Source: Aldrovandia affinis
Lineage: Eukaryota > Chordata > Actinopteri > Notacanthiformes > Halosauridae
DNA: 64,000 nucleotides
Reading direction: 5' to 3'
Assembly (NCBI GenBank): GCA_029706075.1
Contig: JAINUG010000086.1
Span: 1,859,060 to 1,923,059 of the forward strand
The position numbers and the translations under genes are program-made. This document shows positions 2,647 through 27,662 of this stretch, in pieces. Position 1 is the first letter of the stretch. Each line of letters opens with the position of its first letter. A model generated the notes under the pieces. It was not told the DNA's origin. It was given only the letters and a program-made list of their open reading frames with translations, and searched no databases.

Positions 2647-2830
2647 ATTTACATTACATTTAACATTTTAGGTATTTAGCAGACGCTCTTATCCAGAGCG
2701 ACTTACATAGTTTACATTTCTTTACATACAATCCATTTATACAGCTGGATATTTTACTGAAGCAATTCAGGTTATGTACCTTGCTCAAGGGTAAGTCCAA
2801 CCGTTAAATGTTCAGGCAAAGAACATTGCT
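2647..2830 (-). mobile_element. SINE (V-SINE-like) 3' part with L2-type tail
   Basis: On the minus strand the order is: body motif CCTTGAGCAAGGTAC, then CTGAATTGCTTCAGTAAA, then AGCTGTATAAATGGAT, then the tail GTCGCTCTGGATAAGAGCG, TCTGCTAAATA and short TGTAAA-type repeats. This is the layout of tRNA-derived teleost SINEs that borrow the 3' tail of L2 LINEs for mobilisation. The tRNA-like head is missing, so the copy is 5'-truncated. Confidence 0.7.
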
Positions 2831-3960: not shown

Positions 3961-6729
3961 ACAAGTCAGCCATATTGCTTCCATATTGCTCAATTATTAA
4001 TGTTGGCAAAGCAATGCCAATATTCATGCCATTTCTATAGGCATATAAAACCTTGGTGATTGCACCCTGCCAAAACAACTAAATAATTGGCTTTTGGGCA
4101 CACGTGCCTTCTAAATTCTAGATTTGAATGAAATGACATGTTTCCTCCTAAATCCTGTTCCTTTCCATTCCAGTGGTTATGTTTTCCTCCTTGCAATATG
4201 CCATTTATTGATAGGGGATTCTGAATGAAGCCAATGGCTTCCACTTTATTGTGTGTACTACAGATTAGACAGTGTCCTACAAAGAGCGTGCTTGAATCCA
4301 GTAATTCAAGCTCTGAAAGAATGCATATTAAGGTCTCCCAGTGCTGCAATTTAAAGTCTGCCTGTGGATATTGACTTTCATAAATATAAATTTGAGCTTT
4401 GTGCAAGGTTTTAATCCCTGGCTTGTTTGGAGCAAACCAGGTCAAACATGAAATGTCCTTGACTACTCTGATAAAATAAAGCTGGTGGATGTGGCCTTTG
4501 AGTGTTTCACTGAAGCTATGGAATTGTTTATGCAAGTCTGACATCTGGGATGCAAAAAGACCAGATTTCTGTATGTTACTTCGTGAAGATACCACAATAT
4601 ATTAAGGCTGATTACGGTATGATGAGAAAAGGCATTTAATAATTTATTTGTAGAATCTGGTCCTTAGTGAGCTCAAAGTTTGTGTGCACGCATTGCTATT
4701 TGCAGGCATAAAAACCTGTCCTATACAAATAAATAATACATGCATACTCTTAAATTATGGATACAGTTCCTAATATTCTCCATCAGGGAGTAGTGTAACA
4801 CTTGGAAATAGCTCTCTGCAGCATGTACTGAAATAATGATGAGCAAAAGACATCATCAGATGTGGAAACAGTATATAGATGTGCATATTTATGTGCTTGT
4901 GGTACCTCTGCTATTAAATCATTTGATTAGAAACAACAGTATTATATATATATATATATATAAAGCATTAATTAATTTCTACCTTACAAGCACTCTGATT
5001 TCAGCAATAGTGCATTTAGCCTTTATTACAGTCACAGGAGGCAGTATTTTGTTCACCCATGATGGCCTGATTTGCTTATTGCTTTATGAGTGTAAACAAT
5101 TCACAATAGTATGATTTTTTTCAATATTAAATTCACTACAATAACAGGCATACAGAAAACATATACAGAGACAATGTGCTGGTTGTAGGTTTCCATTACC
5201 TTGGTCACATACAGGGGGCAGCATTGCCTCAATGTTATTTTCTGCATGTCAAAAGGCAAAATATTGCCATGACAGTGACCCAAATACACTAATTGCATGT
5301 GCCCCATTATTAAATATAAATTATGCATGAGTAATTGTTAAAGATGGAACGTCTTTCTGATTGGCCTCCTGGGAAGATGACGCCTGACACTTATGTTTAC
5401 AAAAAAACAACTGATTACATTATTGGCTCAAATGCACCAACTAAAGGCCACTGCAAAGTTCAAAAAGCCCTGTATCATAATCAGTAATTGCAAGATTCAG
5501 TGTGGCTAATACAAATATGTGACAACGTGCAGCTCCGTAGTCTAAAAGGTTTACTACCATTTAGACTACTTTCGGCAAATATACATTTAGCACCATGTCC
5601 AACTGGATTTGTATAAATATAAAACAAATAATACAAAAAGAAAAGTTTAAAAAGTCATGTTTTGTCTACGATGAAAGTATTTTCGTGATCTTCCTGGGTA
5701 AATAAGGGTTAAATGAATGAATGAATCTTTATATAAATAAATAAACAACACCCATTTTAGCACTGGACTACAATTGGCAAGGTGTAATCAGTACCATGGA
5801 CAGCTCACACGGCCATTTTCTTAATATGCTGACACATTTCTGGTGATTTTAAATGCGCCACACTTTTTCTGGATCTACATCGGACTAACTATTCCTCATG
5901 TTTCATAACAATCAGCCCCACGTCTACATCAAGAGAAGTAGATCAGGATTGTGTACAGTTAATTACACTATATTGACTATAATAGCTGTTCCAAAACTAT
6001 GGGTGGAGACCCACCGGAGGATCCTGAGAGGGGGCTGAGGAAAAAAAAAGATTTGTTGTGTATTATTCACTTTCCATAAACATTCACACATCACACTGGT
6101 TACCTGTAGAGCACTAGCTACAAGTTGCTTTGACCTAAGTTAAAACCATTTTAATTTCATATTTGATCATATTTATGATATGATCATGATCATATTTAGC
6201 CTACATTTTAATAAGAGGTGGGTCACAGAAACATTTATTTGCTCAAGTAGGTTGTGGGCCCAGAAAGTTTGAGAATCACTATACTATTAAGTTTTCAGTG
6301 GTAATGATGTAAGCCCACCTGTATGGCCTTTTTGGAAGGGTGAGACGTTTCTTCATGATGTGCATGAAATCTATTTTGTCTGAGGGAGGAAGGTGTCTTA
6401 TGCTTTTAATTCATGTCCCATATTGGAATATGGTATATGATATAGTTTTATTTCCCAATGGGACTGCCCAATTGCATTTGTAAGCCCGTCCCATCCAGCA
6501 ATGTCCTCTGTCAATATGAGTGGGCACAGACTGGCATGTGAGTCCACAGAAATATGTACACCCAGCCATTTCACTTCGCTACTTTTTACTTCTGTAGTCC
6601 AGCAACTGAACTGCGTAGCCATTGCGCCAATGGACTGCACTGCCTGTTTAGGTGATGCAGTGAGGATAGCTGATGTTTAAAATATGATTCCACCCTTCTG
6701 AGTTCACTACCTCAGAAGTGGACCATATA
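3961..6729. other. Long stretch without a recognised gene
   Basis: It contains a 186-codon open frame on the minus strand (4035-4595) that matches no family known to me, has no repeat-like or compositional support and is probably chance. A short (AT)n run lies at about 4942-4962. A poly-A tract near 6042 is followed by unique sequence. Confidence 0.45.
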
Positions 6730-7304
6730 CAGTCAAGCCGGAAAGTCTGCACACCCCTTTCACCCTCTCCACGTCTCATTGCATTACAGACTTATTCTAC
6801 AATAGATTAAGTTCATTTTTTGTCTCAAAATTCTACACAAAATAGCCCATAATGACAAAGTGAAAACAGGTTTTTAGACATTTGTGCTGATTTATTACAA
6901 ATCAAAATGTAAAATATCATTTTAGCAGAAGGACAACCATCTCTGCACCGCTCCATCAATCAGGCCTTTTCAAATCATGTCCAATCAATTGAATTTACCA
7001 CAGGTGGACTAGAATCAAGTTGTAGAAACATCTCAAACAGTATCAGTGGAAACAAAACGCACCTCAGCTCACTTTTGGGTGTCATATCAAAGGGTGTGCA
7101 CACTTGTGTACATATGATAGTTTACATTTAGATTTTTAATAAATTAGCACAAATGTCTAAAAACCTGTTTTCACTTTGTCATTATAGGCTATTTTGTGTA
7201 GAATTTTGAGACAAAAAATGAACTTAATCTATTGTAGAATAAGTTTGTAACGCAATGAAATGTGGAGAGGGTGAAAGGGGTGTGCAGACTTTCCGGCTTG
7301 ACTG
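6730..7304. mobile_element. Tc1/mariner MITE with about 210-bp inverted termini
   Basis: The element starts CAGTCAAGCCGGAAAGTC and ends in the inverse complement GACTTTCCGGCTTGACTG, and TA dinucleotides flank both ends (6728-6729 and 7305-7306), as for Tc1/mariner insertions. The inverted termini run about 210 bp and include GACAAAGTGAAAACAGG and its complement. The roughly 150-bp centre contains AAGGACAACCATCTCTGCA and CCATCAATCAGGCC, remnants of a Tc1-type transposase region in antisense. No transposase frame remains, so it is non-autonomous. Confidence 0.9.
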
Positions 7305-7530
7305 TATGTTGTGACTCTTCTCATATGGAGGCATCGAATATGCGAAGGTCTGTTTAATATGCTGTTGTCCTGGGGCATATACCAATGGACATTGTATAGG
7401 TTCCATTTTTTAGGGGCACTAGCCCAGGAATTTCACCTCAACAGTAAAACTATTTGTTTTAATAAGGAACCATTGATATATCTGAAGGTTTTAAGTTAAT
7501 AGATTTAGTAGAGCCCAACTTATTAGAATA
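7305..7530. other. Short unique spacer
   Basis: Nothing recognisable between the Tc1 MITE and the LTR to its right. Confidence 0.4.
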
Positions 7531-8145
7531 ATGAGACAACACAATTCATAACATAATTCAAGTAACATTTATTAAACAAACAGAATATTTGCTAAATATA
7601 ATGCAAGTGGAGTACCGGTATATAACGGATTCAACAAGAATGCATGAGATTAATAACACGTATAAAATACCATTATTAAAAGATGAAAAATTTGACTCAA
7701 GATCTAAATAATAGAGTGTGCTATACTCAATCTCTATTCAGAAGTTTAAATCTCTGGTTATTCCTTACAAACATGGCACATGTGGCCTTGCTCTCTCCTC
7801 TCCTTGGCTGGAGTCGGGGCTGTGTGTTCCAGCGCAATCCAGTCCAGTAGTCGGTACACAAAGGGGGGTCCTCAAACAATCCAAAATACTTCTCAAAATA
7901 CTTCTCAAAAACCTCTCCACAACACTTTCCACAATCACCACCCTACTCCTTCTCTCAGTGTAACACAAACAAGTCATTTAAATAGGCCTTGAAATTGCCT
8001 TCAGCTGTCCGTAGTCCTCCGGCTTTACGGGCTTCAGCTGTGGGACTGCAGGCTGCTGGGAAATGCAGTCTTTCCCTCTCCAGTGGCTCCCAAGAATTAA
8101 AGAGGCAGGCCGCCATTTCCTCGTCCTGCCCCTTGGTATGCCACA
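7531..8145 (-). mobile_element. LTR of the TGTGGCA family, minus strand
   Basis: On the minus strand it starts TGTGGCATACC at 8145 and shares blocks with the LTRs at 24495 and 27096: CATTTCCCAGCA, CAGCTGAAGGCAATTT and the promoter-like AAGGCCTATTTAAATGACT (against AAGGCCTATTTAAAGGACT). Downstream come degenerate TTTTGAGAAGTA repeats. The block GGTCCTCAAACAATCC (plus strand, about 7867-7882) is shared with the LTR at 55533. The left edge near 7531 is approximate and I found no convincing target duplication. Confidence 0.6.
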
Positions 8146-8424: not shown

Positions 8425-9834
8425 AATGAAGCATATAGCAGATATTTTCTGGTAGCAAGCGAATGTGTTACAGTATACCTGTTGCTAGTATATAATACAC
8501 TAAAACTGTAAAAAAAGGCAGATTTTTGTGCCGTTTTTCATTGCAACAGTACACAGGGAGGCACTTTTCATAGTGACCCTGTCCTTCTAGATAAATGGGT
8601 CAAATTACTAGGAAAGATCATACTTTTCTGAATTGACCTAATACAAACACAAAAACAAAGAGGCTTTGCAAAGGTATTGCTCCTGAAGCCAGTCGCTATT
8701 CCATAAATGTATCCTGGGGACCCCGCAACCGGGAGTCAACATGGACATCCTGGTAAGTGTTACTTTTTTGTAAAGCTAACATAGATGTTTATCTCAAATG
8801 AATCACATTTCGGTAACATCAGCCTATAATATATGGCCATAAAGCATCCAATTTACAGGAAATCTAATATAGTATGGTTTATAAAATTGCGGAAAATTAT
8901 AATGTTAGCCATACGGTAAACAATTTCTGTACATACATTTAGTGGTGTAGTCATATTCCATAAACCCACCTTATTTTCACATCCTTGTGTATATACCCAC
9001 CTACATTTTACAATTTACATTTTAAGCATTTAGCAGATGCTCTTATCCAGAGCGACTGACAAGATGTGCATTAATACATGATAAGAGGAATCATTGTTCG
9101 CGCAAGCTATCAGTGCAGTAATACAGCAATAGACATACATCATTGTTGGTGGCTGCATACATACCTGTAACATTGAGAAGGAAAAGGTTAGTATTTTATT
9201 ATAAAAATTTTTTTAGGAGTAAACAAGTATACATATACAAAAAGTATTAAACATGTAGGCAGTGGTGATGACAATTGGCTAGATGTACAGAATTCAGTGG
9301 TGAGTTTTGAGTCTCGCGGAAGATGGCCAGTGATTCTGCGGTCCTGACCGATTGCAGAAGATCGTTCCACCACCGAGGGGTCAGGACAGAGAAGAGGCGA
9401 GACCGCGAGACCGCGAGGAGCAGCTGGAGTGATGGGACAGTCAGTTTGCCAGAGGAGGCAGAGTGGAGGGGTTTGGCTGAGGTGTAGGGTGTGATGAGTG
9501 AGGGTATGATGAGTGAGGGTGTGATGAGATTTGAATCTGATGGGTGCTGCGAAGGGAAGCCAGTGCAGATAGGAGAGTAGAGGGGTGACATGGGTGAACT
9601 TGGGTTGATTGAACACCAGACGTGCGGCAGCATTCTGGACTAGTTGCAGTGGCTTGATGGCACAGGCCAGTAGGCCTGCCAGCAAGGAATTGCAGCAGTC
9701 CAGATGAGAGATCACCAGGGCCTGGACCAGGAGTTGGGTGGCCTCTTCGGTGAGGAATAGTCGGATCCTCCGGATGTTATGGAGGCAGAATCGGCAGGTA
9801 CATGTGATGTAGCCCGAGAATGAAGCATATAGCA
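8425..9834 (-). repeat. 16-bp direct repeats bracketing a LINE-containing segment
   Basis: AATGAAGCATATAGCA occurs exactly at 8425-8440 and again at 9819-9834. The second copy abuts the truncated 5' edge of the minus-strand LINE, as a target-site duplication would. The LINE tail is at about 9005, so the repeats would enclose the LINE plus about 560 bp of non-LINE sequence (8441-9004) on its 3' side. Confidence 0.6.
9005..9818 (-). mobile_element. 5'-truncated L2/CR1-group LINE, C-terminal reverse transcriptase and 3' tail
   Basis: The minus strand encodes the conserved block after the reverse transcriptase palm: LVQALVISHLDCCNSLLAGL, then AIKPLQLVQNAAARLVFNQP, then HVTPLLSYLHWLPFAAPIRF. It is followed, with frameshifts, by the RWWNDLLQSVRTAESLAIFR block. 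The 3' UTR ends with the L2 tail (complement of GCTCTTATCCAGAGCGAC) and short AAATTGTAAA repeats at about 9005-9040. A tandemly repeated TCACTCACCATAC-like segment (9485-9535 on plus) interrupts the frame. No APE or YADD segment is present, so it is a dead copy truncated at about 9818. Confidence 0.9.
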
Positions 9835-15904: not shown

Positions 15905-17500
15905 TTGTACATTTTAAGCATTTAGCAGATGCTCTTATCCAGAGCGACTTACAAGATATGCATTATTACATGGTAAGAACAATCATTGTTCACGCAAGAG
16001 ATCAGTGCAGTAATACAGTGATATACATTGTTGTTGGCAGCTGCATACCATACCTGTAACACTGGGAAGGAAAAGGTGAGTAAATATCTGTATTTGTTTT
16101 GAAGAGTAAACAAGTATACATATACAAAAAGTATTAAATAAGTAAGCAGTGGTGATGACAATTGGCTAGATGTACAGAATTCAGTGGTAGTGGAGTCTGA
16201 AAAGGTGGGTTTTGAGTCTCTTGCGGAAGATCGCAAGTGATTCCGTGGTCCTGACCGAGTGCGGAAGATCATTCCACCACTGAGGGGTCAGGACAGAAGA
16301 GGCGAGACCGCGAGGATCGGCTCTGGAGGTAAGGGGGGGCAGTTCCTCTAGCCGCTTGATAAGCTAACACTAGTGATTTGAATCTGATGTGTGCTGCGAT
16401 GGGGAGCCAGTGCAGAGAGGAGAGTAGAGGGGTGAAATGGGTGAACTTTGGTTGATTGAACACCAGATGTGCGGCAGCATTCTGGACTAGTTGCAGTGGC
16501 TTGATAGCACAAGCCGGTAGGCCTGCCAGCAAGGAATTGCAGTATTCCAGACGTGAGATCACCAGGGTCTGGACCAGGAATTGTGTGGCCTCTTGGGTAT
16601 GGAACGATCGGATCCTCCGGATGTTATGGAGGGAGAATCGGCAGGTCCAGGTGATCGCTGCGATGTGACCCGAGAAGCACAGCTGGTCATCCAGGGTCAC
16701 TCCAAGACTCCTGGAAGACTAGGATGGGACACTATGGAGCCTTCCACGATGATTGAAGCATCAATCATCGGGGAGCCCTTCGCTGGGAGGAAGAGCAGCT
16801 CCGTCTTCCCCAGATTCAGCTTCAGGTGGTGGGTCGACATCCAGGCAGAGATGTCAGCCAGGCATGCAGAGATCCACACTGGGACCTGGAGAGAAGGAGA
16901 GAAAGAGTTGAGTGTCGTCGGCATAACAGTGATAAGAAAAACCATGAGCAGAGATAACAGAACCAAGTGACTTGGTGTACAGGGAGAATAGGATGGGGCC
17001 TAGCACCGAGCCCTTGGGACTCCAGTGGAGAGGGTGTGGGAAGAGGAGAGGGATCCTCTCCAGGCCACCTGAGACATTGGGACTTGACCACTTGTAGAGC
17101 CTCAGTGAATGCGAGCAGAGCAGTCTCTGTGGAGTGGCCTGCCTTGAACCCAGATTGGTTAGGATCAAGCAGGTTGCTCTGTAGTAGATGAGCAAACAGT
17201 TTGTTATAGACAGCTCGCACTAGTGTTTTGGAAAGGAATGGGAGGAGAGACAGGTCAGTAGTTAGAAAAGACAGCAGGATTCAGAGAGGGTTTTTTGAGG
17301 AGGGGGATGACATGGGCGCTTTTGAGGGGAGAGGGGACAGAGCCAGAGGAAAGGGATGAGTCAAAGGGGAGGATGTCCATAGCAATGGACTGGAAGAGGG
17401 GGGAAGGAATGAGGTCGAGAGGGCACGTGGTAGGACGGTGGGAGTAAACAAGTTGAAGGATGTCCGAGTCAGGGAGGCGTGAGAAGGAAGACAGCATTAA
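15905..17500 (-). mobile_element. Decayed L2/CR1-group LINE covering the reverse transcriptase
   Basis: Successive minus-strand frames show an ordered reverse transcriptase: HRPTTCPLDLIPSPL (about 17440), [15 protein letters not shown] (about 17150), [20 protein letters not shown], and the catalytic YADD (complement of 16914-16925, context [12 protein letters not shown]). Then come STHHLKLNLGKTELLFLPA, SRLEYCNSLLAGLPACAIKP, the HWLPIAAHIRFKSL block and the C-terminal RTTESLAIFRKRLKTHLF. The 3' tail with CGCTCTGGATAAGAGC lies at 15915-15955. A deletion removes sequence between ALL...EAL and the GSVLGP block, with frameshifts nearby. No APE domain is present. Confidence 0.92.
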
Positions 17501-23866: not shown

Positions 23867-24494
23867 TTCATGAAAGGTAGGACAGACAGTATTCCTACTC
23901 TGACCCCAATGTACTTGGTTCCCCCTACCCCACTGTAGCGACCGTAAAGGCAGGGCAGGTAAGCTCCACCCCACTCTCACCATAAGGCGGCAACCTGCTT
24001 AACCAAAAAAAGCACACTGCACTCCACACAGCACACTCCCCTGTTCCACACACACTTTGAGGGAGGGGTATTTACACATAATTTCCCCCCCACTACCCAT
24101 TGGCAACCACTCCGCCAAACCGTTCCTCTAGATACTGCCGCCCCTTAATCCCCCTTCCCCCAGGAACCAATAATTGGGGCCCTCTATCACACCCACACCA
24201 ACACAACACCCATCACAAAAGAAACACAAAAATAATGAAAAGGGAAAGAAAACCACACTGGGGAGGTCGCACCAGCCCAAGCTCCCCCCAAAAGAAAAAT
24301 AAATAAATTGAAAGTTCTTCCAGCTGGCCTCCCCACTCCAATCACGGCCGCTCTACTCCGGCAACAGCTAGCCTCTCCTCGTCTGGCCACGCCCCCTCCA
24401 GATCCATGCTTGCACGCAGTTCAGGTGACAAATACTGGAAGGAAATAACAGCGCTTTCAGGAAGAGCGATTTCGCTGTGCTACGATGTTCACGC
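23867..24494. other. C-rich spacer, no gene seen
   Basis: Poly-C runs and pyrimidine-rich sequence on the plus strand; possibly the rest of an older LTR in minus orientation. No coding signal. It is the immediate target region of the LTR element that begins at 24495. Confidence 0.35.
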
Positions 24495-25121
24495 TGTGGC
24501 AGCCCGATGGGCTGCACTAGGAAATGGCTGCCTGGCCTACAACACATGGCAGCCATTTTCACTACATTTCCCAGCATGCCACCGCAACACCTGAATGAAG
24601 TCAGGCATGGGGAGCTAACGACCAGCTGAAGGCCATTGCAAGGCCTATTTAAAGGACTCGCTCCCAGCACACAGCAGAAGAGGAGTCGGAACGTGCGTGG
24701 GAAGGAGTGGTGTGAAGAGAGAGAGTTTTGAAGAGAGAGAGTTTTGAGAGAGAGTTTTGAGAGAGAGTTTTGAGAGAGAGTTTTGAGAGAGTTTTTGGAG
24801 AGAGAGAGTTTTTGAGAGAGAGAGTTTTGAAAGTGTGTTTGTTTTTTGTGTTTGGATTTGGATTGCTGCTTTGGATTTTGACGACGGATTGGACAACGGA
24901 ACTTGGACCTGGATTGTGGATTTGGGTTACGGACATTGACAAAGAGACAAGGATTGTGGACTTTGTGTTTGTATTCCCCAAAAGACCCCACCCTGCGTTT
25001 CGTGTTTGTTCGTACAATAAATCATAATTGTTGCTGATATTACTGCCTCCTCCGTGTTCTTACACTTGCCTACGCCCTCTGCAAGGTCCGTGAGTGTCGC
25101 CCAACCCCTGGGGACACCACA
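24495..25121 (+). repeat. 5' LTR of the coiled-coil-bearing element
   Basis: 627 bp, TG...CA. It contains the TATA-like GGCCTATTTAAAGGACTC at about 24642-24659, a long GAGAGAGTTTTGA-type tandem stretch (24717-24835) and AATAAA at about 25016-25021 as polyadenylation signal. Compared with the 3' LTR it has an extra segment of about 31 bases just after TGTGGCAGCC. Confidence 0.92.
24717..24835 (+). repeat. GAGAGAGTTTTGA tandem repeat in the 5' LTR
   Basis: About eight loosely repeated units. The equivalent stretch in the 3' LTR (27285-27365) has fewer units, so the array changed in copy number after or during insertion. The Ser/Leu-rich frames on the opposite strand are artefacts of this repeat. 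Confidence 0.85.
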
Positions 25122-25123
25122 TA

Positions 25124-25140
25124 TGGTGGAGAACGCGGGC
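25124..25140 (+). promoter_or_regulatory. Primer-binding site
   Basis: TGGTGGAGAACGCGGGC starts two bases after the 5' LTR and begins with TGG, as needed to pair with a tRNA CCA end. The tRNA was not identified. Confidence 0.7.
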
Positions 25141-25207
25141 AGAGGGCACCTATAGGCAAGAGGAGGTAGTGCAGCAGGATTCTTCTTTGGTTTGTGCAAC
25201 GGACTCC

Positions 25208-27166
25208 ATGAAGGAAGAGATGGAGAGACTGAAAAGACGGGCAGCCATGGTGGAGGACCAATGGCGTGTCACCCTCCGTGAGGTCCAACAGCTGAAGCAG
25301 AGTGCCCAGCTTGAGCTGTGCAAGGCAAAGCTGGAGGTGAGCGCCTCAGAGGAGCGCCACCTGCTGGCCGTGATGAAGTTACGAGAGGAGCACCACATGG
25401 ACTCCCTGGGAGCGCTGGGAATCATGGCTGGGGAGATGGAAAAGGAGAAGGCGTCCCATGGCGATGAGATGAGGCGTGTCGAGTCCCACAACCTGGCGCT
25501 CAAAGAGCAGGTGAGAGCCCTAACCCAGATGCGTGAGGATGAGCAGCGACAGTGTCTGAAGATGCAGGAGATGAACGTGGAGCTGCAGCAGAGGCAGACC
25601 GAGCAGGAGAAGCTCCTGGCCCAGAGAGATGACGTCAGCTCCCAGCTGCAGGAGGTGAACCGCGCCAACAGCCGGCTCCTGGAGCAGCTGACTGAACTGG
25701 GCCAAGAGAAGGACAAACTCCAGCAGGAGCTGGAGGAGACCAGGAAGATGGCGGACAAGCGCAAGGCCATGCTGGACGAGCTGGCCATCGACGTGGCGCA
25801 GGAGAAGTCGCGGCACAAGGAGGAGCTGAGCGACGCGTGGCTGCAGCACGAGAAGGAGGTGCTGGGCGTGCGGGCGCGCTACAAGAAGGAGCTGTGCGGC
25901 CTGCACGAGGACAAGAAACGCACTGAGGAGGAGATCCGCTCACAGCTCCGCGACGAGAAGGCCCGCACTCGGGAGCTGGAGAGCATACAGCAGACGGTGG
26001 AGAAGCTGCAGGCTCAAATCCAGTCCATGGAGGGCACCAAGGGATGGTTCGAGCGCAGACTCAAAGAGGCGGATGAGACGGCGGAGAAGAGTGCGCTGGA
26101 GCACCAGGAGCAGGTCCAGAAGCTGCAGCTGGAGCAAACCGCACAGCTTCAGGGGAAAATGGCGGAGATGGAAGCCCAGCAGCGGGCCACAGAGAATGCA
26201 TTTCGGGAAGTACTGAAGGTCCAAGCCGAGACTGTGCTGGACCTACAAGACCGACTGAAAGGGGTGAGTGAAGAGCTGGACGTTGTAAAGTGTGTTCCTG
26301 TCACCCAAGACGCTAGCCCACAGGTGGAGTTCTCACAGCCAATGGAGCCAGCAGGAGAGGATGACCAGACATTGGAGTGGGGACAATGGTCCTCAGTCCC
26401 ACTCAGCCTGCCGGACCTTCAAGGGAGCCTAGAGGAGCTATGGGGGGACCATAGGGTTGAGGAAGGCCTCCTAATTAAGGCCGAGGCCTGTTTGAGCACC
26501 CGACCATCTCCTGACGTGGTAAGTCCATCTCCCTCACTAACATTAAAAAGAAAGAGAAGAAAAGTGGATATTGGAAATTCTCATCTGAAGAAAAATGGTA
26601 AACAAAATAGACTGACTTGTAAACGAAAGGACCGTGGGAAGCGTCTGTGGAAAGGAGATGCCAATATGAAAAATAAAGTAAAGAATAAAGCTAACCATCT
26701 GAAGAGTGTGTTTTCCCCAGTTACCCCACTTGACCACATGGAAGCAACGTGGCAGTGGCGGAAAAGGCCCAAGAGAGGACGCCAGATGATGAAGCTGCAT
26801 CACGTGCACTGGTGGAGCCATGGAACGTTGGTGAAGACCAGAACAGGAGCGGTGACCGCTCCGTCCATGGAGCCCAGAGCCTGTACCCACTGGTGGCCAT
26901 TTTGTGGCAGAAAAGGTGAGCAACTTGCGTCACTCATTAATGTCTGCCAGACATTTTTTCAGGCGAATGGAGATGGGATCTGGACGTTTGACCCGGGTGG
27001 AAAACTGCCTGAGTGGACCTGGAGAGGGGACCTCCTGGTGGCCGCTGGGAATAGGCCGCTCAGCCCTCCCAAGGTCAGAGCTGAGGAGGAGGGTGTGTGG
27101 CAGCCTACAACACATGGCAGCCATTTTCACTACATTTCCCAGCATGCCACCGCAACACCTGAATGA
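25208..27166 (+). CDS. Coiled-coil protein captured in an LTR retrotransposon, GRIPAP1/GRASP-1-like
   Basis: The likely start is ATG 25208 ([14 protein letters not shown]), the first Met downstream of the LTR and primer site. The frame is also open upstream to 25094. It gives 652 residues. Residues 1 to about 360 are almost continuous heptad-type coiled coil rich in Glu, Lys, Gln and Leu. Residues of about 155-289 ([69 protein letters not shown]) match in order what I remember of vertebrate GRIPAP1, a Rab4 effector of recycling endosomes that binds GRIP1. Then come an acidic linker (about 375-440), a basic tract [13 protein letters not shown] that could be a nuclear signal, and a Trp-rich tail; the last 20 or so residues are encoded by the 3' LTR. 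The GC-rich, intronless frame in AT-rich surroundings indicates captured mRNA. Protein function in the element is unknown. Expression would depend on the LTR promoter. Confidence 0.75.
27083..27093 (+). promoter_or_regulatory. Polypurine tract
   Basis: GAGGAGGAGGG lies two bases before the 3' LTR start, the position expected for the plus-strand primer of an LTR element. Confidence 0.75.
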
Positions 27167-27658
27167 AGTCAGGCATGGGGAGCTAACGACCAGCTGAAGG
27201 CCATTGCAAGGCCTATTTAAAGGACTCGCTCCCAGCACACAGCAGAAGAGGAGTCGGAACGTGCGTGGGAAGGAGTGGTGTGAAGAGAGAGAGTTTTGAG
27301 AGAGTTTTGAGAGAGTTTTTTGAGAGAGTTTTTGGAGAGAGAGAGTTTTTGAGAGAGAGAGTTTTGAAAGTGTGTTTGTTTTTTGTGTTTGGATTTGGAT
27401 TGCTGCTTTGGATTTTGACGACGGATTGGACAACGGAATTTGGACCTGGATTGTGGATTTGGATTACGGACATTGACAAAGAGACAAGGATTGTGGACTT
27501 TGTGTTTGTATTCCCCAAAAGACCCCACCCTGCGTTTCGTGTTTGTTCGTACAATAAATCATAATTGTTGCTGATATTACTGCCTCCTCCGTGTTCTTAC
27601 ACTTGCCTACGCCCTCTGCAAGGTCCGTGAGTGTCGCCCAACCCCTGGGGACACCACA
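27096..27658 (+). repeat. 3' LTR of the coiled-coil-bearing element
   Basis: 563 bp, TGTGGCAGCC...GACACCACA, followed by the target duplication ACGC. It has the same TATA-like box and AATAAA as the 5' LTR. It lacks the extra ~31 bases near the start and has a shorter GAGAGTTTT array. Confidence 0.92.
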
Positions 27659-27662
27659 ACGC

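What the first reader, a model, noticed from the sequence alone, without database searches (positions are those of the whole stretch)
24495..27658. A complete, young LTR retrotransposon whose only gene is a host-like coiled-coil protein
Matched LTRs, exact ACGC target duplication, primer site and purine tract show a real retrotransposition event. The 2-kb interior has no gag or pol but one long GC-rich intronless frame (25208-27166). Its residues of about 155-289 follow, from memory, vertebrate GRIPAP1/GRASP-1 (for example [20 protein letters not shown] and [12 protein letters not shown]). Host-gene capture by LTR elements is well known in retroviruses but rarely described for non-autonomous LTR elements in fish. 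If the frame is conserved between copies, the captured protein may aid the element or act as a new host gene.
Basis: partly seen in the sequence, partly recalled or inferred. Interest (0 to 1): 0.88.

Follow-up and report, generated by a model that had tools for sequence, protein, structure and literature searches.

The report
Fish retrotransposon with spliced GRIPAP1 segment
A small, recently active jumping element in a deep-sea fish carries its own zinc-knuckle and coiled-coil protein gene into which a spliced piece of the host gene GRIPAP1 was swapped in frame, and this hybrid has spread and been reshuffled in the genome.

Summary
The element is real: 5' LTR 24495-25121, 3' LTR 27096-27658, ACGC duplications, open frame 25208-27166. 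The genome is, by its proteins, Aldrovandia affinis. The GRIPAP1 call is right: 25572-26175 matches six exons of the fish's own GRIPAP1 gene at 93-100% DNA identity, introns absent. But GRIPAP1 is only about 31% of the frame. The rest is the element's own ORF; LTR-bearing relatives carry it with a CX2CX4HX4C knuckle and a coiled coil, seven of ten fetched reaching past the site without GRIPAP1. A GRIPAP1 mRNA piece replaced about 66 residues of that coil, with 8- and about 5-nt microhomology at the joins, as expected for template switching. The 26 interiors compared, chosen for likeness to the window copy, all carry the segment, but their tails differ by up to 27%: recombination between elements. 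LTR pairs differ by 0-5%. Changes arising among copies look near neutral (omega about 0.7); a function of the chimera is not shown. No pol or helper was identified. Capture of host genes by LTR elements is known; this is a well-resolved new variant.

The parts
24491..24494 (.). target-site duplication ACGC, left copy
24495..25121 (+). 5' LTR, TGTGGCAG...ACACCACA, 627 bp, with a 13-bp GAGAGAGAGTTTT tandem repeat inside
24646..24653 (+). TATTTAAA, TATA-like box in the 5' LTR
   Evidence: motif match; function inferred
25016..25021 (+). AATAAA poly(A) signal in the 5' LTR
   Evidence: motif match; function inferred
25124..25141 (+). putative primer-binding site TGGTGGAGAACGCGGGCA two bases after the LTR; tRNA not identified
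   Evidence: position and sequence; inference
25208..27166 (+). open frame of 652 aa (P0001), chimera of the element's own ORF and GRIPAP1; runs into the 3' LTR
25235..25570 (+). coiled-coil part of the element's own ORF; 79% DNA identity to L056 (no GRIPAP1) and 81% to L063 (knuckle plus GRIPAP1)
25572..26175 (+). captured GRIPAP1 segment, about residues 405-605 of A. affinis GRIPAP1; blocks 25572-25652, 25649-25747, 25746-25961, 25959-26073, 26075-26156, 26147-26175 match six successive exons, introns absent
   Evidence: 93-100% identity per block
26171..26780 (+). tail of the element's own ORF after the GRIPAP1 junction (73% identity to L056)
27079..27095 (+). polypurine tract AGCTGAGGAGGAGGGTG
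   Evidence: sequence; role inferred
27096..27658 (+). 3' LTR, 563 bp
27659..27662 (.). target-site duplication ACGC, right copy

Best explanation
The element belongs to a large LTR family of Aldrovandia affinis whose relatives carry one gag-like ORF (CCHC knuckle, long coiled coil, basic C-terminal part) and, in the copies read, no pol. During reverse transcription of such an RNA the enzyme, supplied in trans by an unidentified element, jumped to a co-packaged spliced GRIPAP1 mRNA at GGAGCAGG and back at about GAAGC. This replaced about 66 residues of the element's coil by GRIPAP1 residues 364-605 in frame. The chimera kept LTRs, primer site and purine tract, so it could be copied on. It amplified, lost pieces by internal deletion (the window copy lost the knuckle part and the first captured exon) and exchanged tails with related elements by recombination. 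SHOWN: anatomy, TSDs, exon-exact intron absence, parental gene, relatives without GRIPAP1, junction microhomologies, mosaicism, recent insertions. INFERRED: co-packaging and template switching, a pol donor in trans, a gag role of the ORF, the recombination mechanism. The captured coil is most likely a tolerated coil-for-coil swap carried as a passenger.
For: L023 matches seven successive exon blocks of the gene in order with six introns absent; L029 does so with an internal gap, L063 matches five of the seven, the window copy six. The gene's exons lie on C213. Ten loci found with the knuckle part: 10 of 10 have LTR-like sequence (69-81% to the window LTR) on the 5' side; seven (L053-L057, L060, L062) run on into the tail without GRIPAP1, three (L058, L059, L061) do not reach it. 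L063 is an LTR-to-LTR copy (3' LTR cut by the end of the fetched stretch) with an 819-codon open frame holding knuckle, coil, GRIPAP1 and tail. 5' join: element L056 GTGGAGCAGGAGAGC, host CAGGAGCAGGTGGAG, chimera GTGGAGCAGGTGGAG; 3' join: element AGAAGCC, host GGAAGCA, window copy GGAAGCC. 26 of 26 interiors hold the segment. Identity to the window copy: GRIPAP1 94.5-99.3%, tail 73-100%, C part 75-99.6%. LTR pairs K2P 0-0.05 in 22 pairs, no substitutions in L029 and L030. Exact 4-bp TSDs in W, L012, L013, L016, L017, L023, L029 and at the outer ends of the L015 and L024 tandems.
Against: No autonomous partner was identified, and searches score only the best 40 or 150 places. One A. affinis protein model, P0135, joins a piece of this family to an integrase fragment (E 2e-7, 31.5 bits, just under the cut-off); I took it for a gene-model join but did not read that locus. 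No capsid domain is recognised (no Pfam family at E<=1 for P0122), so 'gag-like' rests on the CCHC pattern and position; the loci showing the knuckle were found with a query containing it. Relatives without GRIPAP1 have LTRs only 69-81% like the window's, so the immediate acceptor was not seen. At the 3' join many copies have A, as in the element, where the window copy has G, as in the gene, so the switch point is uncertain by a base. 5' starts of the GRIPAP1 homology differ among copies.
Confidence: 0.87

Rival explanations
1. The chimeric coiled-coil protein is functional: it assembles with, or alters trafficking of, particles of a helper element, and selection keeps the GRIPAP1 part.
For: Disjoint-pair test with CpG sites apart: GRIPAP1 omega 0.63 (65 nonsynonymous of 109, 76.3 expected, z -2.4), coil 0.68 (44 of 66, z -1.5), C part 0.93 (75 of 105, z -0.3). 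All distinct changes against the parental gene: 72 nonsynonymous to 49 synonymous, omega 0.60, z -2.8; those shared by at least half the copies 4 to 10, omega 0.16. L029 and L030, with no LTR substitutions, are open through coil and GRIPAP1. Open frames of 787-819 codons lie next to GRIPAP1 hits at C69, C1447, C2489, C136.
Against: 20 of 25 copies have a frameshift in coil, GRIPAP1 or tail (some may be assembly errors). Changes found in two or more but fewer than half of the copies have omega 0.77 (z -0.8), singletons 0.68 (z -1.6). The shared class includes changes on the constrained host gene's own branch.
Confidence: 0.25
2. A processed GRIPAP1 pseudogene made by a LINE landed inside an element copy.
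For: The segment is spliced.
Against: It is an internal mRNA piece cut inside exons at both ends, without poly(A) or duplications of its own; it replaces element sequence, stays in frame in several copies, and has microhomology at both ends.
Confidence: 0.04
3. The non-GRIPAP1 coiled coil is a second captured host gene rather than the element's own ORF.
For: It is a coiled coil; no capsid or pol domain is recognised in it.
Against: CCHC knuckle in front of it; LTR-like sequence beside it in 10 of 10 loci; at least 150 places in the genome; 29 of 29 protein hits are from A. affinis (proteins of 299-952 aa only).
Confidence: 0.08
4. GRIPAP1 was captured several times independently.
For: Different 5' ends of the GRIPAP1 homology and different tails among copies; a one-base difference at the 3' join.
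Against: Homology ends at residue 605 in 23 of 26 copies; 14 changes against the parental gene are shared by at least half of the 26 copies; the 5' join has the same bases in L029 and L063. Internal deletion and recombination explain the rest.
Confidence: 0.08

Closest known systems
Bs1 of maize (passages in PMC13317346, and PMC5408686)
   Same: LTR element carrying pieces of host genes (three are named) in a hybrid ORF (title of a cited paper)
   Different: Here one host gene, swapped coil for coil; relatives without the insert and the intron-bearing gene are both at hand; many copies, in a vertebrate
LTR-mediated retroposition in metazoans (Tan et al. as described in PMC5408686 passages; the original was not seen)
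   Same: template switching at short similarities between element RNA and cellular mRNA, often part of the mRNA only; reported for zebrafish, mosquito, chicken
   Different: here the chimera is a multiplying and recombining family; the passages seen describe retrocopies in general
Crocodilian ERVs that captured KIT-ligand and nectin3 mRNA (PMC4299795 passages)
   Same: vertebrate LTR elements with captured host mRNA in several copies
   Different: there retroviruses; capture without loss of an ERV domain or in place of env; purifying selection reported. Here no recognised pol, capture inside the gag-like ORF, selection weak at most
TR-GAG non-autonomous elements of plants (named in PMC10552921 passages; details recalled)
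   Same: LTRs plus a gag-type ORF only
   Different: here in a fish, no recognised capsid, long coiled coil
Retroviral gag-oncogene fusions (recalled)
   Same: in-frame host segment inside a gag-type frame, defective element needing a helper
   Different: no sign of infectivity; a coiled-coil segment without a recognised signalling domain

Membership tests
LTR retrotransposon | matched LTRs beginning TG and ending CA, short target duplication | tested here: met
LTR retrotransposon | primer site and polypurine tract next to the LTRs | tested here: inconclusive
   positions and purine tract fit; tRNA for the primer not identified
LTR retrotransposon | multiple dispersed copies | tested here: met
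autonomous Gypsy, BEL or retrovirus-type element | pol (protease, reverse transcriptase, integrase) | tested here: not met
   window copy: no Pfam family in P0001 at E<=1, interior 1974 bp. Family as a whole not searched for pol; P0135 joins a family piece to an integrase fragment and was not read at its locus
TR-GAG-like gag-only element | Gag domain (capsid and zinc knuckle) | tested here: inconclusive
   CX2CX4HX4C in 5 of 5 relatives scanned (found with a query holding it); no capsid domain recognised; the window copy lacks the knuckle
LTR-mediated host-gene capture | spliced host mRNA segment between LTRs | tested here: met
LTR-mediated host-gene capture | microhomology at the switch points | tested here: met
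   GGAGCAGG and, to within a base, GAAGC; element side read from L056 only
GRIPAP1 (GRASP-1) gene | full-length GRIPAP1 with its N- and C-terminal parts | tested here: not met
   residues 364-605 at most of 882

The most novel reading that the evidence does not exclude
A vertebrate gag-only LTR family in which a coiled-coil module of a host trafficking protein replaced part of the element's own coil, and the chimeric protein acts in the element's favour (assembly or endosomal routing of helper particles), so that the chimera spread and recombined its way through several element lineages.
Probability: 0.2. Interest if true: 0.82.

Novelty: new variant of a known kind. Interest (0 to 1): 0.6.

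Why it matters
With host-gene capture by LTR elements, source, acceptor and joins are seldom all at hand (my judgement). Here one genome holds the intron-bearing source gene, relatives of the acceptor without the insert, and many forms after capture, with both switch points readable to about a base. Capture, amplification, deletion and recombination can be followed step by step in a vertebrate, outside infectious retroviruses. It also warns annotators: several A. affinis protein models (for example P0009, P0010, P0012, P0021) join recognised host domains to pieces of this element.

Tried and rejected
Chance coiled-coil similarity: rejected by exon-exact DNA matches. Pfam gave nothing for P0001, P0122, P0004, P0013, P0029 and only weak hits under the cut-offs for the other proteins scanned; the strongest, an integrase fragment in P0135, is told above. 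The solved-structure search gave five hits at E 0.088 or worse. Residues 365-652 alone found no protein at E<=0.001 among 2210 candidates. The Acipenser hit P0003 is a GRIPAP1 with an internally repeated stretch, not an element copy. Other dN/dS estimates for the GRIPAP1 part: pairwise against the window copy mostly 0.2-2.5 on few changes, 0.37, 0.46 (p 4e-5), 0.50; set aside because CpG sites mislead them. CpG-aware: 0.63, 0.60 over all distinct changes against the gene. Dropped before counts: L019_7229+ (not an interior: sequence inserted in an LTR); L011, L014, L026 have one LTR only. Primer tRNA: compared from memory only, no match. Literature: the four terms LTR retrotransposon, captured, host gene and GRIPAP1 together gave no paper; some searches were seen as listings; this is not proof of absence from print.
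Full report
WHAT IS THERE. The window holds a complete LTR element: 5' LTR 24495-25121, interior, 3' LTR 27096-27658, both LTRs TGTGGCAG...ACACCACA, with ACGC on both sides. TATTTAAA and AATAAA occur in each LTR, TGGTGG follows the 5' LTR by two bases, and AGCTGAGGAGGAGGGTG precedes the 3' LTR. The LTRs differ at 6 of 562 aligned bases; the 3' LTR lacks 33 bases near its start and 31 in the GA repeat (spacings). The open frame 25208-27166 gives 652 residues.

ORGANISM. The best protein hit is an A. affinis protein, and ten of the best twelve are (AAFF_G numbers). The lengths of the contigs holding P0011 and P0123 (3,129,969 and 1,982,102) are those of C213 and C935 in G000, where the gene and the protein were then found. 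A. affinis is a halosaur, Notacanthiformes. The name is inferred, since G000 bears none.

THE GRIPAP1 PART. A. affinis GRIPAP1 (P0011, 882 aa) is the closest GRIPAP1: 199 of 212 ungapped residues identical, against 180 of 211 for Albula and 178 of 212 for Conger. The gene's 3' exons lie on C213 at 692982-718223. In C213:685000-692500 seven exon blocks for residues 355-629, and an eighth beyond, are separated by introns. L023 matches the seven blocks in order without intron sequence; L029 does so with a gap across blocks four and five; L063 lacks those two; the window copy matches six, 93-100% each, ending inside the last. So the insert came from spliced mRNA of the fish's own gene. Rab4 binding of GRASP-1 was mapped to a coiled coil at residues 280-300, with other regions perhaps involved (PMC2808209, passages); that numbering was not mapped to the fish protein, but it lies before residue 364, so the captured piece is probably a coiled-coil stretch without that site (inference).

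THE OTHER PART IS THE ELEMENT'S OWN. L029 and L028 keep a longer 5' coding part. Protein P0123, without GRIPAP1, shares it and has CICCMEYGHQPSEC (CX2CX4HX4C) before the coil. 29 of 29 hits of this part are from A. affinis (proteins of 299-952 aa). A genome search with it scored 150 of 1211 candidates and all 150 matched, with open frames up to 882 codons. Ten of these loci were cut out, about 3.4 kb each: 10 of 10 have LTR-like sequence before the ORF (69-81% to the window LTR; partial in L053), seven run on into the tail without GRIPAP1, three (L058, L059, L061) do not reach it. L063, fetched because a GRIPAP1 hit lay nearby, has knuckle, coil, GRIPAP1 and tail in one 819-codon frame between two LTRs, the second cut by the end of the stretch. 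In L056 66 residues lie between QVEQ and EAQQRATEN; in the fused copies GRIPAP1 364-605 stands there. How many family members carry GRIPAP1 was not measured.

JUNCTIONS. 5': element (L056) GTGGAGCAGGAGAGC, host CAGGAGCAGGTGGAGAGC, chimera (L029, L063) GTGGAGCAGGTGGAGAGT; shared GGAGCAGG. 3': element AAAGAAGCCCAGCAG, host ATGGAAGCAGTGAAG, window copy ATGGAAGCCCAGCAG; shared GAAGC. Many other copies have A before GAAGC, as in the element, so this point is uncertain by a base. The window copy keeps the 3' join; its 5' side is a later deletion. Against L063 it also has 39 bases where L063 has 428, so the knuckle is gone.

SPREAD AND SHUFFLING. LTR search: 40 scored of 3620 candidates, all matching; C part: 40 of 1324; the 5' part of captured GRIPAP1, read from L029: 40 of 52, all at 98% or more. 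These are lower bounds. I compared 26 interiors (the window's and 25 from 19 loci), chosen through LTR or C-part similarity to the window copy, so not a random sample. 26 of 26 carry GRIPAP1; its end is residue 605 in 23 of 26 (exceptions L015_1985+, L020_2036-, L029). GRIPAP1 identity to the window copy is 94.5-99.3%, but the next 133 bases are only 73-79% in ten of 25 copies, the drop starting about 20 bases after the join, and the C part and LTRs group differently again. Trees of the segments differ accordingly (no formal test). Recombination between element RNAs is the simplest reading. Six of 20 loci hold LTR-interior-LTR-interior-LTR arrays (L015, L020, L022, L024, L025, L028); outer ends share CTGT in L015 and AGGT in L024; L020 and L028 have ATAT on both sides, in AT repeats; L022 and L025 are cut. 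Several insertions lie in AT or CA repeats (not tested against chance).

AGE AND SELECTION. Of 22 LTR pairs K2P runs from 0 to 0.05; L029 and L030 show no substitution, though gaps. Middle LTRs of tandems are shared, so those pairs are not clean clocks. Frameshifts in coil, GRIPAP1 or tail occur in 20 of 25 copies, in-frame stops in 3 of 25; a 1-base loss recurs at one place in five copies and may be an assembly error. With CpG sites apart, disjoint pairs give omega 0.63 for GRIPAP1 (13 pairs), 0.68 for the coil (13), 0.93 for the C part (11). Against the parental gene, changes shared by at least half the copies are 4 nonsynonymous and 10 synonymous, but include the host gene's own branch; changes in two or more copies below half have omega 0.77, singletons 0.68, neither clearly below 1; all together 0.60, z -2.8. 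A weak constraint is possible; a function is not shown.

COMPARISON. Known kind: LTR-mediated capture of host mRNA (maize Bs1; retrocopies in zebrafish and others; crocodilian ERVs; passages). What differs is the place (inside the gag-like frame, coil for coil), a carrier with no recognised pol in a fish, and source, acceptor relatives and product side by side. Therefore a new variant of a known kind.

Noticed in passing
window 7972-8145 (minus strand): A diverged fragment (69% over 176 bp) of the start of a related LTR.
   Followed up: partly
window 6722-6931 and 7103-7312: A 210-nt inverted repeat, 92% complementary, 171 nt apart; perhaps a foldback or DNA-transposon remnant.
   Followed up: no
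window 2662-2752, 9016-9106, 15908-15998: Three copies of a 91-nt repeat (63-100% to the reference copy), perhaps SINE-like.
   Followed up: no
L015, L020, L022, L024, L025, L028: Tandem LTR-interior-LTR-interior-LTR arrays in six of 20 fetched loci.
   Followed up: partly
flanks of L013, L016, L018, L021, L027, L030, L063: Insertions in or next to alternating purine-pyrimidine tracts such as (AT)n; not tested against chance.
   Followed up: no
A. affinis proteins P0009, P0010, P0012, P0021, P0136, P0138: Protein models with host domains contain pieces of this element; probably gene-prediction joins or intronic copies taken as exons.
   Followed up: no
A. affinis protein P0135: A model joining a piece of this family to an integrase fragment; a gene-model join or a lead to the pol donor.
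   Followed up: no
Acipenser ruthenus protein P0003: GRIPAP1 with an internally repeated stretch of the same coiled-coil region; model or assembly error possible.
   Followed up: no
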